Assembly (NCBI RefSeq): GCF_004959925.1
Contig: NZ_SPUW01000001.1
Coordinates: 1,240,001-1,304,000, forward strand
Length of the DNA stretch: 64,000 nucleotides
Direction of reading: 5' to 3'
Source: Pseudooceanicola onchidii
GTDB taxonomy: Bacteria > Pseudomonadota > Alphaproteobacteria > Rhodobacterales > Rhodobacteraceae
Shown here: positions 55,441 to 60,662 of the stretch, piece by piece
Numbering within the stretch: position 1 is the first letter of the stretch
How the letters are laid out: the number at the start of each line of letters is the position of its first letter
The notes under the pieces: model-generated
Told to the model about the DNA's origin: nothing
The model's database searches: none
The model's input: the letters and a program-made list of their open reading frames with translations, nothing else
Position numbers and translations under genes: made by a program

Positions 55441-55509
55441 TCGCGCTTGAATGATTGAAGATGCACGGCTCCGGGGTCAGCACCGGGGCTGTTGCCCGGG
55501 CCGGTTCGC

Positions 55510-56688
55510 ATGTCCTTGAGTGATCGGGAAATCATCGTCGTCGGGGCCGGGATCGGTGGTCTGACGGCGGCGCGCGCCCTGGCGCTACGCGGCGCGACCG
55601 TCACCCTGCTTGAACAGGCCCCCGCGATCACCGAGGTCGGCGCGGGCCTGCAGATCAGCCCGAACGGGATGGCCGTGCTGCGCGCGCTTGGGCTTGAACA
55701 GGCGGTCAGGGACACCGGCGCGCCGGTCTCTCGTGGTCTGGTTCTGCGAAACGCGCGCGGCGCGTTGCTGGCCCGCTTTCCCTATGCCGGGCTGAACCGC
55801 CCCGACGATTACCTCTTTGTTCATCGTGCCGACCTGGTCGGCGTGCTGGCCACGGCCGCACGCGATGCTGGCGTCGACATCCGCCTTGGCCAGACCGTGC
55901 TGGGTGTCGCGCCCGGGGAAGCACCACGGGTCGACCTGGCAAATGGCACCTCTCTCACGGCTGATCTGGTCATCGGGGCCGATGGTCTGCGTTCGGTCAT
56001 TGCCCCCGCGATCCAGCCGCGCCCCGAACCATTCTTCACCGGGCAGGTCGCCTGGCGCGCCCTGGTTCCCGGTGACAACGGACCTGCCGAGGCGCAGCTG
56101 TACATGGCGCCCGGGCGGCATCTTGTGACCTATCCCTTGCGCGGCGGCAGCCTGCGCAACATCGTGGCGGTCGAGGAACGCGACAGCTGGACCGCCGAAG
56201 GCTGGTCGCATCGTGATGATCCCGACACCCTGCGCCACGCCTTTGCCGGGATGGGGCCGCAGGTGCAGGCGATGCTGGCGCAGGTCACGACCACCCACCT
56301 CTGGGGCCTCTTTCGTCACGAGGTCGCGCCGTTTTGGCACCGCGATCACGTGGCAATCCTGGGCGACGCGGTCCATCCGACCCTGCCGTTTCTGGCGCAG
56401 GGCGCCTGCATGGCGATCGAAGACGCTTGGGTCCTGGCCCGCTGCCTGGATAGCACGCCCGACAGTCACGACGCGCTTGCCGCCTATCAATCCGCCCGCC
56501 ACGCGCGGGTCACGCGGACGGTCAGGTCGGCGACGGGCAATGCCTGGCGCTTCCACCTGCGCGGGCCGCTGGTCGTGGGGGCCCAGATGGCCATGCGGGC
56601 CGCCGGTGTCATGACGCCCCACGCCATCACGCGGGGCTATGCCTGGCTATACGATCACGACGTCACGCAGGGCGACCGGTTGGCCTAG
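55510..56688 (+). CDS. FAD-dependent aromatic monooxygenase (salicylate/3-hydroxybenzoate hydroxylase-like)
   Basis: 392 residues. FAD-binding GAGIGG at 12-17 (IIVVGAGIGGLTAARALA), the DG motif VIGADGLRS, and the GD motif VAILGDAVHPTLPFLAQGACMAIEDA. It belongs to the NAD(P)H-dependent single-component hydroxylases. The substrate cannot be named; no ring-cleavage genes are adjacent. Start at ATG 55510. It converges on xth with a 4-bp overlap. Confidence 0.88.
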   Translation: MSLSDREIIVVGAGIGGLTAARALALRGATVTLLEQAPAITEVGAGLQISPNGMAVLRALGLEQAVRDTGAPVSRGLVLRNARGALLARFPYAGLNRPDDYLFVHRADLVGVLATAARDAGVDIRLGQTVLGVAPGEAPRVDLANGTSLTADLVIGADGLRSVIAPAIQPRPEPFFTGQVAWRALVPGDNGPAEAQLYMAPGRHLVTYPLRGGSLRNIVAVEERDSWTAEGWSHRDDPDTLRHAFAGMGPQVQAMLAQVTTTHLWGLFRHEVAPFWHRDHVAILGDAVHPTLPFLAQGACMAIEDAWVLARCLDSTPDSHDALAAYQSARHARVTRTVRSATGNAWRFHLRGPLVVGAQMAMRAAGVMTPHAITRGYAWLYDHDVTQGDRLA

Positions 56689-57467: not shown

Positions 57468-57837
57468 CGGCCCGGCCTCCTGTTTTTCGGCAGTCTTAGC
57501 GATTCATTCGGGCGGGGCAAGCGACGCACCTGAGCGTCACGCGGGTGCGGCCTCGCGTCACCTGTTCCGCAAATCTGCCGCAAAATCGCACGCCCGAGTC
57601 AGGCGATTCGAACGCATCATGTGGGTCGTGAATCGCTCCGTGACGGATAAGGGCAATTTTGTGGCGATGTTGAGAAAATTTTCAGACCTGTCGGGTTTCA
57701 ATCGTTTCAGAGACTTAACGCGAATCGCCTCGCGTGCCACAGAAATCAGCACACGTATAGGTTGAAAAATGTCTTGGCGAAAACCGGTTAGAGGGCAAAG
57801 CTCATGTACATCAACTGCCAACATGGGGAACAAACCA
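57468..57837. other. 370-bp intergenic region upstream of the repeat-protein gene
   Basis: Lower in GC than its flanks from about 57640 on, as expected for a promoter region. It holds the ACGCGA-N6-TCGCGT dyad (57718-57735). A 48-codon frame (57619-57765) has no ribosome-binding site and I do not call it. No other gene is seen. Confidence 0.5.
57718..57735. promoter_or_regulatory. Inverted repeat upstream of the repeat-protein gene
   Basis: ACGCGA-ATCGCC-TCGCGT is a perfect 6-bp dyad about 100 bp before the ATG at 57838, in the AT-richer promoter region. It is a candidate operator of the cassette. Confidence 0.35.
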
Positions 57838-58608
57838 ATGACCGCAATTCGCAAAAACTTCATCGCCCAAGCATCTGACAAAGCTCGTGAAAACACCTCC
57901 CTTATGGGCGAGGGTGTCGAGATGTTTGCTTCCGGTTCCGCACCCTCCGCATCCTCCGGCCTGACCGGCGACGCGGTCGAGATGTTCGCCTCCGGTTCCG
58001 CCCCGGCGACCGCCACCCGCGCCCTGGTTGGCGACGCGGTTTCGCTCTTCGCGTCCGGCTCCGCGCCGACCGCTTCTTCAGATGTCAAGGCCGGTGATGC
58101 GGTCGAAATGTTCGCCTCCGGCTCCGCTCCGACAGCTGGCCGCACCTTCTCCGGCGACGCGGTCGAGATGTTCGCCTCGGGTTCCGCGCCGACTGCCACG
58201 AAAATGAGCACCGGCGACGCGGTCGAAATGTTCGCTTCGGGCTCCGCTCCTGTGACCTCCGACGCCTCCACCGGCGACGCGGTTGAGATGTTCGCCTCGG
58301 GTTCCGCCCCGGTGACCTCCGACGCTTCCACCGGTGACGCGGTCGAGATGTTCGCTTCGGGTTCGGCCCCGGTGACCTCCGACGCCACCACCGGCGACGC
58401 GGTTGAGATGTTCGCCTCGGGTTCGGCCCCGGTGACCTCCGACGCCTCCACCGGCGACGCGGTCGAGATGTTCGCCTCGGGTTCGGCCCCGGTGACCTCC
58501 GACGCCTCCACCGGCGACGCGGTTGAAGCCTTCGCTTCGGGTTCGGCTCCGGTGACGTCCGAAGTCTCCGCAGGCGACGCGGTGCAGTCCTTCGCCTCCG
58601 GCAGCTAA
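57838..58608 (+). CDS. Acidic tandem-repeat protein, possible multi-core peptide precursor (256 aa)
   Basis: A 23-residue leader (MTAIRKNFIAQASDKARENT, then SLM) carries nearly all the basic residues. Twelve units follow: the first (GEGVEMFASGSAP...) at residue 24, then GDAVEMFASGSAP followed by 7-8 variable residues, 20-21 residues per unit. Units 6-10 read GDAVEMFASGSAPVTSDAST, with one S/T change. The last is a stub ending FASGS. No cysteine, tryptophan, tyrosine or histidine is present, and each late unit has net charge about -3. There is no signal peptide or membrane helix. The ATG has GGGGAA upstream; ATG 57823 is an alternative. It lies 57 bp before the helical partner gene, in one likely operon with the transporter. 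I recognise no function. Confidence 0.88.
   Translation: MTAIRKNFIAQASDKARENTSLMGEGVEMFASGSAPSASSGLTGDAVEMFASGSAPATATRALVGDAVSLFASGSAPTASSDVKAGDAVEMFASGSAPTAGRTFSGDAVEMFASGSAPTATKMSTGDAVEMFASGSAPVTSDASTGDAVEMFASGSAPVTSDASTGDAVEMFASGSAPVTSDATTGDAVEMFASGSAPVTSDASTGDAVEMFASGSAPVTSDASTGDAVEAFASGSAPVTSEVSAGDAVQSFASGS
57907..58605 (+). repeat. Twelve tandem ~60-bp coding repeats
   Basis: Unit starts: 57907, 57967, 58030, 58093, 58153, 58213, 58273, 58333, 58393, 58453, 58513, 58573. Units 2 and 3 are 63 bp, the last is 33 bp, the rest are 60 bp. Units 9 and 10 differ at one base. Units 6 and 10 differ at six bases, all synonymous. The period is a multiple of three, which keeps false frames open on both strands. 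Confidence 0.95.
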
Positions 58609-58665
58609 GCCGACACCACTGACGGGCGGGGCAGGAATAGCCCCGGTGACCAAAGGAGACCTACA

Positions 58666-59757
58666 ATGTCCAATGTCATCCGCCTTTCCTTCCCCTCCCG
58701 CCAGGAGCAGCGGGCCGCGTCGATCGCGGCCCTGCTGGAGACCTTCGCCCTGCACCGCCGCGACGAAAGCGACGTGTTCTGGATGAAGGAGAATGCCGAG
58801 ATCCTGAACATCCTCGAATGCACCGGTCAGTCGGTCCCGCGCGAGGCGCTTGAGGCCTACGCCGGGTTCTACGACACCATCGAGGAGCGTCTGGAGTTCT
58901 TCCCACAGTACTACCGGTTCCTTCTGTCGATCTGCCAGGACCTCGAATCCCTCGGGATGGAGGGGGGCAAATCGGCCGGTCTGGCGCGCTGGATTGCCGC
59001 CGAAGGACTGGTCGAGGCCGAGCTGTCGGACCTGCAGCGCGGGGAGGCCATGCGCCTGCTGACGCGAAGTGGCGTCAATATTGATATGGACATGACGCTA
59101 ATCAATGTCAGGTTGAATCAATTTGCGGCACGTTCGAAAACGTTCGCGGTTCCGAATAAAAAAGCCGCTTACGAATTGACACATATCGCTTTTTACCTAT
59201 CCGAGTACGGTCGGCGCGATCCCGAACTGGATGCGCAAGTCCTGCAAAGCCTTAATTACACGGGCATACTGGCTTTTCTGGATTGCAATTTTGATCTCCT
59301 TGCGGAAGTCTTGGTGGCAATTGGGTATTGCGGAGCCGAGGCGCCGCAGCTCTGGAAAGATGCCGTCACCAATTCCACGGCCCTTTTCTCGGTTTCGGAA
59401 GGTGACGACGCAGTGCGGCAAGACGACTATCACGAATACCTCGTCTGCAACTGGGCGTTGAGCGAATTGGGCCACAAGCCGTTCCAGGCTGCCCTGCGCC
59501 CGGGTCCCGTCAGCTTCCACGCCGCCCCGCGCCAGGCAACGCCGCTGCGCGAACTCTCCGAGGTGATGCATGGGCTCAGCGTCCGCCGGTCGTCCGACTG
59601 GGTCGGGATGCGCGACTACCTGTGCGACTGTGTCAGCCCCGAAAACGCCGACCTCCTGCTGTCGGCGGAAGAGGCCAGCGACTGCTTCCAGGACTTCTTC
59701 TCGGGCTTCGCCCGGACCGGAATGCGGGGCATGGCCCAGGGGGCGATGACCGCATGA
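58666..59757 (+). CDS. Unrecognised helical protein, partner of the repeat peptide (363 aa)
   Basis: Cytosolic and predicted mostly helical; no signal or membrane segment. It begins MSNVIRLSFPSRQEQRAASI. A striking segment at 170-182, ELTHIAFYLSEYG (H173), is followed by DAQVLQSLNYTGILAFLDCN. This style of His-x3-Tyr helix pair is seen in alpha/alpha-toroid proteins, a weak resemblance. Several cysteines occur (LVCNWAL, YLCDCVS). The central part (about 59080-59360) is much richer in A/T and uses rare codons (CTA, ATA, AGG, TTA), unlike either end. The ATG has an AAAGGAGA site. Its TGA overlaps the transporter ATG (59754-59757). Function unknown; a modifying or chaperone role for the repeat peptide is a guess. 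Confidence 0.85.
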   Translation: MSNVIRLSFPSRQEQRAASIAALLETFALHRRDESDVFWMKENAEILNILECTGQSVPREALEAYAGFYDTIEERLEFFPQYYRFLLSICQDLESLGMEGGKSAGLARWIAAEGLVEAELSDLQRGEAMRLLTRSGVNIDMDMTLINVRLNQFAARSKTFAVPNKKAAYELTHIAFYLSEYGRRDPELDAQVLQSLNYTGILAFLDCNFDLLAEVLVAIGYCGAEAPQLWKDAVTNSTALFSVSEGDDAVRQDDYHEYLVCNWALSELGHKPFQAALRPGPVSFHAAPRQATPLRELSEVMHGLSVRRSSDWVGMRDYLCDCVSPENADLLLSAEEASDCFQDFFSGFARTGMRGMAQGAMTA

Positions 59758-60662
59758 CGCCAGCGCCCGCCATGGCCCTTACGGGGGCGATCCTTGTCGT
59801 GATCTACACCGGCCTGATCTCATCGGCCGACGGGATCACCAAGCTTCTGGCGGGCGGCTATGCCGCGCCCCAGCTTTATGCCGTGTCCGGCGGGCTGGTG
59901 GCGTTTTTCTGTTTCATCGCCAATGCGATCAAACCGGCACAGGGGGGGCTGCGCACCACACAACCTGTCGCGATGGCCCTGCGGTCGGTCGCGACGGTGA
60001 TTGCGGGCGTATCCTTCTTCTATGCCTTCCGTCTGCTGCCCTTCGCCGAGGTCTTCGTCTTCATCGGCCTGATGCCGCTGGTGGCAGGACTGATGTCCGG
60101 CCCCATCCTGAAAGAGGCCGTCGCCCTGCGTGTCTGGATCGCCCTCGGCACCGGCTTCCTGGGGGTCATCTGCCTGTTTCCCGAAGGCGTGCATGCGGTG
60201 ACCCTGGGCCACGGCGTGGCGCTGCTGGCCTGTGTGTCCGGGACGTTCTCGATGGTCATGGCGCGCTATGTCGGCCGGACCGAAAGCAATTCGCTGGCGC
60301 TGGTCTTCTATCCGAACCTTCTGAACATGCTGGTGATGGCGGCCGTGCTGCCGCTGGTCTACAAGCCGATGCCGCTGTCGGACTTCGGTCTTGCCGTGGC
60401 CTATGCGGCGCTGCTTTTCGGGGCGCGCTGGCTGCTTGTCATCGCCCTGCGGCTGCTGCCGGCCTACACGGCGACACCGCTGATGAACCTGCAGTTTATC
60501 TGGATGGTGATCATCGGCGCGGTGATCTTCGGCGAAGTGCCGGGATCGAACATCTACCTCGGCGCACTGATCGTCGTCGCCTCGGGTCTGTATCTGGTCT
60601 ATGACCAGTTCGCGCCCAATCGCGCCGCGCGCCGTGCCGCGATGATGCCGCCGGCGGAATAA
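59754..60662 (+). CDS. DMT/EamA-family transporter
   Basis: 302 residues with about ten membrane segments, the usual 5+5 EamA plan (ILVVIYTGLISSADGITKLL ... IWMVIIGAVIFGEVPGSNIYLGALIVVASGLYLVYDQF). Many are metabolite exporters. Its ATG lies in the last codons of the helical partner gene (ATGA), so both are made together; this links transport to the repeat-peptide cassette. The substrate is unknown, and DMT carriers normally move small molecules rather than long peptides. A short basic tail follows. Confidence 0.9.
   Translation: MTPAPAMALTGAILVVIYTGLISSADGITKLLAGGYAAPQLYAVSGGLVAFFCFIANAIKPAQGGLRTTQPVAMALRSVATVIAGVSFFYAFRLLPFAEVFVFIGLMPLVAGLMSGPILKEAVALRVWIALGTGFLGVICLFPEGVHAVTLGHGVALLACVSGTFSMVMARYVGRTESNSLALVFYPNLLNMLVMAAVLPLVYKPMPLSDFGLAVAYAALLFGARWLLVIALRLLPAYTATPLMNLQFIWMVIIGAVIFGEVPGSNIYLGALIVVASGLYLVYDQFAPNRAARRAAMMPPAE

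What the first reader, a model, noticed from the sequence alone, without database searches (positions are those of the whole stretch)
57838..60662. Repeat-peptide, helical partner and exporter cassette
Three genes read in one direction between xth and an Fe-S carrier gene. The first codes for a leader plus twelve acidic, Cys-free ~20-residue units (GDAVEMFASGSAP core). The second codes for an unrecognised helical protein. The third codes for a DMT/EamA transporter translationally coupled to the second (ATGA). Leader, repeated cores, dedicated partner and transporter is the layout of multi-core RiPP precursors and some secreted repeat peptides, but no known RiPP enzyme is recognisable. A DMT carrier usually exports small molecules, so the transported product could be a processed fragment. 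The functional reading is a hypothesis.
Basis: partly seen in the sequence, partly recalled or inferred. Interest (0 to 1): 0.85.

Follow-up and report, generated by a model that had tools for sequence, protein, structure and literature searches.

The report
Probable multicore short-peptide cassette in Rhodobacteraceae
A bacterium of a mostly marine group carries a gene for a protein made of twelve near-identical copies of a tiny peptide, next to a probable peptide-modifying enzyme and a transporter; many relatives carry the same gene pair, often with another tiny peptide, which looks like an undescribed family of gene-encoded peptide natural products.

Summary
In detail: a 256-aa repeat protein (12 copies of FASGS), a 363-aa helical protein and an EamA carrier in tandem. 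The RiPP reading gains strong sequence support. The partner is Pfam DUF6902, homologous (Pfam 69 bits; hhalign 96.7%) to DUF6895, for which a lasso-peptide epimerase was reported in 2026 (title only seen). Of 79 genomes over the DUF6902 cut-off among 292 of the order, 78 have the repeat gene directly upstream (one cut by a contig end, one broken); a precursor search hits 61 of 80 genomes with a DUF6902 match and 0 of 212 without. With units chosen by flanks only, 94 of 100 loci hold a single four-residue core (118 of 136 with last units counted), although about half of unit pairs use different codons, and 21 cores occur between loci: selection on a short product. DUF6895 genes of other phyla also follow small precursor-like ORFs (8 of 10 loci). 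Invariant E45, Y169, H173, D210, E214 and H256 suggest a catalyst. The predicted fold (pLDDT 91) has no significant PDB match. EamA follows in 42 of 79 loci, so it is accessory. Product, chemistry and protease remain unshown. Best reading: a minimal multicore RiPP family, probably epimerised.

The parts
57838..58608 (+). Multicore precursor gene, 256 aa: about 23 N-terminal residues (leader-like, no hydrophobic signal sequence by eye) and 12 units
   Evidence: counterparts directly upstream of DUF6902 in 78 of 79 loci
57907..58605 (+). Twelve units of the plan G-x5-F-[ASGS]-AP-spacer; the last unit ends at the core, so FASGS is the C-terminus of the precursor
58628..58644 (+). GC-rich hairpin GGGGC-7 nt-GCCCC between precursor and enzyme genes, possible attenuator
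   Evidence: such hairpins in 69 of 136 intergenic regions, 20.8 expected from shuffles
58666..59757 (+). DUF6902 protein, 363 aa, candidate peptide-modifying enzyme (epimerase-like), almost all-helical
   Evidence: Pfam DUF6902 479 bits and DUF6895 69 bits; hhalign to DUF6895 alignment 96.7%, E 4.6e-10; AlphaFold2 pLDDT 91.4, pTM 0.89
58798..58800 (+). Codon of E45, invariant in the 15 aligned DUF6895 + DUF6902 proteins
59170..59184 (+). Y169-x-x-T-H173 motif; Y169 and H173 invariant in those 15 proteins
59293..59307 (+). D210-x-x-x-E214 motif, both invariant in those 15 proteins
59431..59433 (+). H256, invariant in those 15 proteins
59754..60662 (+). EamA/DMT carrier, overlapping DUF6902 by ATGA; accessory candidate exporter
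   Evidence: EamA 56 bits; same place in 42 of 79 loci and 64 of 80 named loci; best other EamA in own genome 134 bits against 626 for itself

Best explanation
The cassette makes a very short ribosomal peptide natural product. The first gene codes for a precursor that carries the same core (F-ASGS here) twelve times, each behind a recognition segment G-[DE]-x-x-[EQ]-[ML]. The DUF6902 enzyme binds these segments and modifies each core. By homology to the DUF6895 lasso-peptide epimerase, the likeliest change is inversion of an alpha carbon in the core (L to D) by acid/base catalysis using the conserved Glu/Tyr/His/Asp/Glu/His set, perhaps with a metal. A protease encoded elsewhere cuts out a 4-5 residue peptide ending at the last core residue, and the EamA carrier, where present, exports it. 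Shown by sequence: the anatomy, the near-obligate pairing, within-genome core identity under amino-acid-level selection, homology to DUF6895, conserved polar residues. Inferred: modification, its chemistry, cleavage, export, and a role as signal or competition molecule. My split: precursor-enzyme pair of a RiPP 0.85; chemistry is epimerisation 0.45; EamA exports the product 0.4.
For: Pairing: repeat ORF directly upstream in 78 of 79 DUF6902 loci; the precursor search hits 61 of the 80 genomes with a DUF6902 match and 0 of the 212 others. Core: with units chosen by flanks only, 94 of 100 loci (602 units) have one single tetrapeptide, 21 different ones between loci; identity per position 0.97-1.00 within against 0.43-0.79 between. 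Flanking positions are 0.21-0.61 identical within loci, save a Pro two after the core (0.77) and the Gly used for selection. At core positions 2-5 amino-acid identity is 0.992-0.998 but codon identity 0.46-0.49 (121 loci), so identity is held by selection. The core is the exact C-terminus in 111 of 144 precursors. Core type changes at least 39 times on the DUF6902 tree. Enzyme: DUF6895 homology; invariant E45, Y169, H173, D210, E214, H256; title of Shi et al. 2026 on a DUF6895 peptide epimerase. DUF6895 genes of Streptomyces, Kitasatospora, Pseudalkalibacillus and other Pseudomonadota follow small ORFs with related leader motifs in 8 of 10 loci. In one genome (L109) enzyme and precursor are both broken.
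Against: No product, modification or cleavage has been observed. The DUF6895 epimerase paper was not readable; only its title was seen, and homology does not fix the reaction. No protease or known maturation gene was recognised among the widespread neighbours. EamA is missing in 36 of 77 tree rows. One intact enzyme locus (L085) has no precursor within 7 kb. The shared chromosomal site means that part of the co-occurrence is inheritance of one locus. The precursor search missed 19 of 80 DUF6902 genomes, so its zero in the other 212 is less strict than it looks. With last units counted, 18 of 136 loci hold more than one core type, a few of these by chance matches outside the array.
Confidence: 0.6

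Rival explanations
1. RiPP pair with a different chemistry: DUF6902 dehydrates, cyclises, oxidises or cleaves the Ser/Thr/Cys-rich core instead of epimerising it, using the conserved Glu/His/Asp set as a metal site.
For: Core position 3 is Ser or Thr in 135 of 137 loci and Cys in one more, with only the Gly six before the core imposed. Conserved E, H, D, E, H residues would also suit a metal-dependent oxidase or hydrolase. No solved fold matches at E 0.001 or better.
Against: The only characterised relative named in the library is a peptide epimerase. No dehydratase, ATP-grasp, YcaO or radical-SAM gene appears among the window's ten scanned neighbours, and the own genome has no SPASM hit.
Confidence: 0.27
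2. Not a RiPP: the repeat protein acts whole, as an acidic disordered protein (binding, storage or surface), and DUF6902 is its chaperone or secretion partner.
For: Low-complexity, acidic, Cys-free repeats; helical partner; no protease gene recognised nearby.
Against: Selection acts on four residues per unit, holds them identical within most genomes over diverged codons, and lets them switch between genomes, which a whole-protein role does not predict. The core forms the free C-terminus in 111 of 144. DUF6895 relatives pair with short, dissimilar precursor-like ORFs.
Confidence: 0.1
3. The EamA carrier is a passenger: it exports an unrelated metabolite, and only the precursor-DUF6902 pair forms the system. 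(This can hold together with the best explanation of the pair.)
For: EamA present in 42 of 79 loci, with at least 7 presence/absence changes on the tree.
Against: Four-base overlap with DUF6902 at the first start codon of the frame in 27 of the 42. In 37 of the 41 other loci that have it, the carrier scores 225-384 bits to the window's, above the best paralogue in the own genome, 134 bits. The rows that branch first carry it (root by midpoint only). 64 of 80 named loci have it.
Confidence: 0.4

Closest known systems
DUF6895 family (PF21836), with a lasso-peptide epimerase reported by Shi et al., ACS Catal. 2026 (title seen in the reference list of PMC13352647; paper not held)
   Same: Homologous protein (69 bits over a 23.8 cut-off; hhalign 96.7%); same invariant E, Y, H, D, E, H; gene placed right after a small precursor-like ORF in 8 of 10 loci.
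   Different: DUF6902 scores far higher to its own model and has residues invariant only within it. Its precursors hold up to 20 copies of a 4-5 residue core instead of one or two longer aromatic ends.
Multicore RiPPs such as cyanobactins, orbitides or dikaritins (recalled, not compared by a call)
   Same: Repeated cores with conserved flanking segments; homogeneous cores within one precursor.
   Different: Core of only four to five residues; a single partner of another family; no protease, macrocyclase or heterocyclase recognised in the cassette.
FxSxx-COOH peptide systems of actinobacteria (passage read in PMC7159879)
   Same: Core FxSxx at a free C-terminus, by sequence pattern.
   Different: Those systems carry a metallopeptidase gene and, for the FxSxx type, a radical-SAM/SPASM gene. 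No SPASM hit in the own genome; the precursor matches no NCBIfam model at E 1.
MslH, the MS-271 lasso-peptide epimerase (abstract of PMC10406935)
   Same: Proposed type of reaction: epimerisation of a ribosomal peptide by acid/base chemistry.
   Different: MslH has a calcineurin-like metallo fold (abstract); DUF6902 is predicted almost all-helical and its Pfam scan shows no such domain. The two were not compared directly.

Membership tests
RiPP (ribosomal, post-translationally modified peptide) | Gene-encoded precursor with a defined core | tested here: met
   Core positions 2-5 stand out by within-locus identity and selection
RiPP (ribosomal, post-translationally modified peptide) | Dedicated modifying enzyme encoded beside the precursor | tested here: inconclusive
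   DUF6902 beside the precursor in 78 of 79 loci; that it modifies is inferred from DUF6895 homology
RiPP (ribosomal, post-translationally modified peptide) | Modified, cleaved product demonstrated | not testable with these tools
   needs mass spectrometry
DUF6902 (PF21843) | Score over the curated cut-off (27 bits) | tested here: met
   479 bits over positions 1-351 of 351
DUF6895 (PF21836) | Score over the curated cut-off (23.8 bits) | tested here: met
   69.4 bits, residues 20-229; DUF6902 scores far higher, so it is a related family
Peptide epimerase of the DUF6895 kind | Conserved active-site residues | tested here: inconclusive
   E45, Y169, H173, D210, E214, H256 invariant in 15 proteins of both families; which of them act in catalysis is not known to me
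Peptide epimerase of the DUF6895 kind | Epimerisation activity | not testable with these tools
   no assay
Lasso peptide cluster | Protease (B) and asparagine-synthetase-like cyclase (C) genes near the precursor | tested here: not met
   none of the ten neighbouring ORFs scanned in the window (50.4-64.0 kb) matches such a Pfam domain, nor do ten representatives of widespread neighbours
FxSxx-COOH / SPASM radical-SAM system | Radical-SAM protein with SPASM domain | tested here: not met
   0 SPASM hits in the own genome; the same search rings in 8 of 14 control genomes
EamA/DMT transporter | Pfam EamA domain over cut-off | tested here: met
   56 bits over a 28.2 cut-off, 2 stretches

The most novel reading that the evidence does not exclude
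A widespread but undescribed RiPP class of Rhodobacteraceae: a precursor with up to 20 copies of one tetra- or pentapeptide core, one DUF6902 enzyme that inverts a core residue, and a DMT carrier exporting a tiny D-amino-acid peptide. Different lineages have different core 'words' (ASGS, TSGL, TSSM, TTSM, STSC and others), as expected of lineage-specific signals or competition molecules.
Probability: 0.4. Interest if true: 0.88.

Novelty: new variant of a known kind. Interest (0 to 1): 0.78.

Why it matters
About a quarter of the sampled genomes of the window's order (79 of 292) carry DUF6902, nearly always with the precursor and at one chromosomal site. No paper in the held library names DUF6902, and five further searches there listed no account of such a system (listings only). 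If right, many of these bacteria make a lineage-specific gene-encoded peptide of four to five residues with a two-gene minimal pathway. That would mean a new chemical language in a common bacterial family, a small single-enzyme peptide-modifying tool with easily swapped cores, and a second branch of the DUF6895 enzyme clan. It also makes a direct test possible, since precursor and enzyme can be co-expressed in E. coli.

Tried and rejected
Rejected: (1) chance or merely young repeats: codon identity at core positions is only 0.46-0.49 while amino-acid identity is above 0.99. (2) Long minus-strand ORFs over the repeat (57558-58511 and 58078-58755): taken as shadows of the repeat; no family search was made for them. 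(3) A cyclophane made by a SPASM radical-SAM enzyme, suggested by the FxSxx pattern: no SPASM hit in the own genome. (4) Anti-phage defence: no PADLOC match for any of the three proteins. (5) A third maturation gene: of the 45 neighbour clusters shown, ten representatives were scanned with Pfam and are an exonuclease, HD phosphohydrolase, Arg-tRNA synthetase, SPOR protein, glycosyl hydrolase, DksA, FAD-binding protein, AAA ATPase, ScpA and DUF2927; the FAD-binding protein recurs in 33 of 79 loci, in the window on the far side of the exonuclease gene, and is not excluded as a partner, only not supported. (6) A solved relative: sequence searches gave only chance-level hits (E 0.33 and 0.26), Foldseek none at E 0.001 or better; a weak partial resemblance to drimenol synthase (TM 0.34-0.40, E 0.7-0.8) was not used.

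Mended on the way: the first core finder imposed S/T/C at position 3; it was redone without that (where groups were still chosen by similarity) and with units chosen by flanks only (which by its pattern leaves out last units without a following Pro). One search counts last units too: 118 of 136 loci single. The EamA count in named loci was 61 because the stretch looked at was too narrow; a wider look gives 64 of 80, one of the other 16 (L195) ending 1.5 kb after the DUF6902 start. Rows left out: one search set aside L048, L085, L104, L109 and L196 before counting; four show a precursor by eye (L048 and L196 cut by contig ends, L109 broken), L085 does not. A1 left out the truncated L107 and L109. 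A3 used 55 of the 80 named loci; L192 was dropped for stops in its matched stretch, the other 24 were simply not entered. Of the DUF6895 hits, H9 (Gemmatirosa) and the sub-threshold loci L121 and L122 were not examined for precursors. In one search the folding z-scores of the intergenic region were unremarkable (median -0.38); the hairpin rests on the count.
Full report
OBSERVATION. The first codes for 256 aa with 12 FASGS units, no Cys, 31 acidic against 8 basic residues. The second codes for 363 aa, the third for an EamA carrier that overlaps it by ATGA. The tandem array scores up to 591 with a 60-base period. The own genome has this repeat protein once. Neighbours in the window by Pfam: FAD_binding_3, Exo_endo_phos, then the cassette, then Fe-S_biosyn, HD/HD_assoc and a Na/H exchanger. 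The names xth, dgt and argS used below are recalled names that fit those domains.

THE PARTNER IS RECOGNISABLE. It matches Pfam DUF6902 with 479 bits and, over its cut-off, DUF6895 with 69 bits. A profile comparison of 56 DUF6902 proteins with 10 DUF6895 proteins gives 96.7% probability, E 4.6e-10. In an alignment of 15 proteins of both families E45, Y169, H173, G182, D210, E214 and H256 (window numbering) are invariant. In the library of papers only one names either family: a review whose reference list cites Shi et al., ACS Catal. [quoted passage not shown] The paper itself is not held, so only the title is evidence.

DISTRIBUTION AND CO-OCCURRENCE. DUF6902 passes its cut-off in 79 of 292 genomes of the order and in 4 of 385 sampled from the class, all four of the window's family. 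I read all 79 loci (78 fetched, plus the window). They lie at one chromosomal site: a xth-like gene upstream in 78 loci, a dgt-like gene downstream in 76 (Pfam of one representative each). A repeat gene lies directly upstream, on the same strand, in 78 of 79, counting L048, cut by the contig end, and L109, where both enzyme and precursor are broken. The exception is L085, with none within 7 kb. A search with the window precursor hits 61 of 292 genomes; all 61 are among the 80 with a DUF6902 match and none among the 212 without; it misses 19 of the 80. A scan of named genomes found 382 contigs with relatives, of which the best 80 were fetched, from Pseudooceanicola, Marivita, Roseovarius, Shimia, Ruegeria, Phaeobacter and others.

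THE CORE. Units have the plan G-x5-[F]-x-[S/T]-x-x, followed by x-Pro in 98 of 121 loci by consensus. With only that Gly imposed, 137 loci with at least three units (927 units) give Phe at position 1 in 130 and Ser or Thr at position 3 in 135 (one row, with the consensus TSGST, is out of register). Positions 2-5 are 0.987-0.995 identical within a locus; flanks are 0.21-0.61, save the Pro (0.77) (groups there were chosen by similarity). With units chosen by flanks only, 100 loci and 602 units give 0.996, 0.975, 0.973, 0.975 within and 0.43, 0.79, 0.43, 0.49 between loci; 94 of 100 loci hold a single tetrapeptide, with 21 different consensus tetrapeptides. With last units counted too, 118 of 136 loci are single and 18 mixed, some by chance matches outside the array, some true hybrids such as FSTSC with FSSGS. 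Position 1 is equally conserved within and between loci (0.92), so Phe may be recognition rather than product. At positions 2-5, amino-acid identity over pooled unit pairs is 0.992-0.998 but codon identity 0.46-0.49 (121 loci). In the window the core Ala, Ser, Gly and Ser codons vary while the residues do not. Core identity is therefore held by selection, not by recent copying. In 111 of 144 precursors the last core is the C-terminus. On a tree of 77 enzymes core type changes at least 39 times. In one clade of four (L032, L033, L034, L036; their contig lengths equal those of Marivita records) the cores are FTSGS, FTCGL, FTSAS and FTSGS, each uniform in its precursor.

DUF6895 RELATIVES. DUF6895 genes outside DUF6902 were examined at 10 loci (L110, L111, L113, L120, L215-L220). 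In 8 of 10 a small ORF lies just upstream with related leader motifs (LxxSG[IL]x[ND], with departures in L111 and L120) and an aromatic end such as GPWYAYH or YVLAWDKYVLVV. In L111 and L113 the unit is repeated within the ORF, and L110 has two such ORFs. The two Streptomyces loci with tandem DUF6895 genes (L219, L220) lack it. So the clan goes with short precursor-like ORFs in Actinomycetota, Bacillota and Pseudomonadota, but core types differ between branches. No lasso gene is named in the annotation of L215-L219; I made no family search for them at these ten loci.

STRUCTURE. AlphaFold2 on 56 sequences gives an almost all-helical protein, mean pLDDT 91.4, pTM 0.89. Foldseek finds no PDB match at E 0.001 or better.

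EXPORTER AND REGULATION. EamA follows DUF6902 in 42 of 79 loci, one further locus (L107) ending too early to tell, and in 64 of 80 named loci (the two sets overlap in part). At least 7 changes on the tree, with EamA in the rows that branch first, fit an ancestral three-gene cassette with repeated loss, but the root is only the midpoint. In 37 of the 41 other loci that have it, the carrier scores 225-384 bits to the window's, against 134 for the best paralogue in the own genome. A GC hairpin lies between precursor and enzyme in 69 of 136 loci against 20.8 expected, as an attenuator would; folding energies alone did not stand out.

MECHANISM. Most likely: precursor made; DUF6902 binds each G-[DE]-x-x-E-M segment and inverts one core residue; a protease from elsewhere frees a 4-5 residue peptide ending at the last core residue; EamA, where present, exports it. 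The precursor anatomy and the pairing are shown by sequence; the rest is inference. That DMT carriers move small molecules, which suits a peptide this short, is general knowledge and not from a call.

VERDICT. The RiPP reading is strongly supported at the level of sequence. The exporter is accessory. The kind (multicore RiPP) is known; the enzyme family, the size of the core and the two-gene economy appear undescribed in the library searched (listings only). I therefore call it a new variant of a known kind.

Noticed in passing
58628-58644: GC hairpin between precursor and DUF6902; such hairpins are in 69 of 136 loci against 20.8 expected, possibly an attenuator.
   Followed up: partly
L219:5026-8688 and L220:5661-9012: Streptomyces plasmids carry two tandem DUF6895 genes followed by a beta-lactamase-family gene (L219 by Pfam; L220 judged by its ORFs only), in L219 also near a P450 and a 62-aa ORF: perhaps another peptide pathway.
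   Followed up: no
L054, L056, L207, L061, L072, L077: Hybrid precursors with two core types, e.g. STSC units with SSGS units, the last unit being SSGS in L054, L056 and L207.
   Followed up: no
L085:6998: The only apparently intact DUF6902 gene seen without a precursor within 7 kb: orphan enzyme or precursor moved elsewhere.
   Followed up: partly
L109:3960-5500: Cassette in decay: DUF6902 in five fragments and stop codons in the precursor, consistent with the two being lost together.
   Followed up: partly
L120:1092-2088: A DUF6895-like gene of only 215 aa in a genome of the same family as the window that had no DUF6902 match, with a precursor-like ORF (holding GWWAVVSDHCVVAGG) upstream.
   Followed up: partly
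L106, L108, L102, L103: Divergent enzymes with cores not starting with Phe (MTSVA, AQSFS, MPTSN, STSSF); position 3 is still Ser or Thr there, though that finder imposed S/T/C.
   Followed up: no
55492-56688: A FAD-binding (FAD_binding_3) protein on the same strand beyond the exonuclease gene recurs in 33 of 79 loci; probably synteny, not tested as a partner.
   Followed up: no
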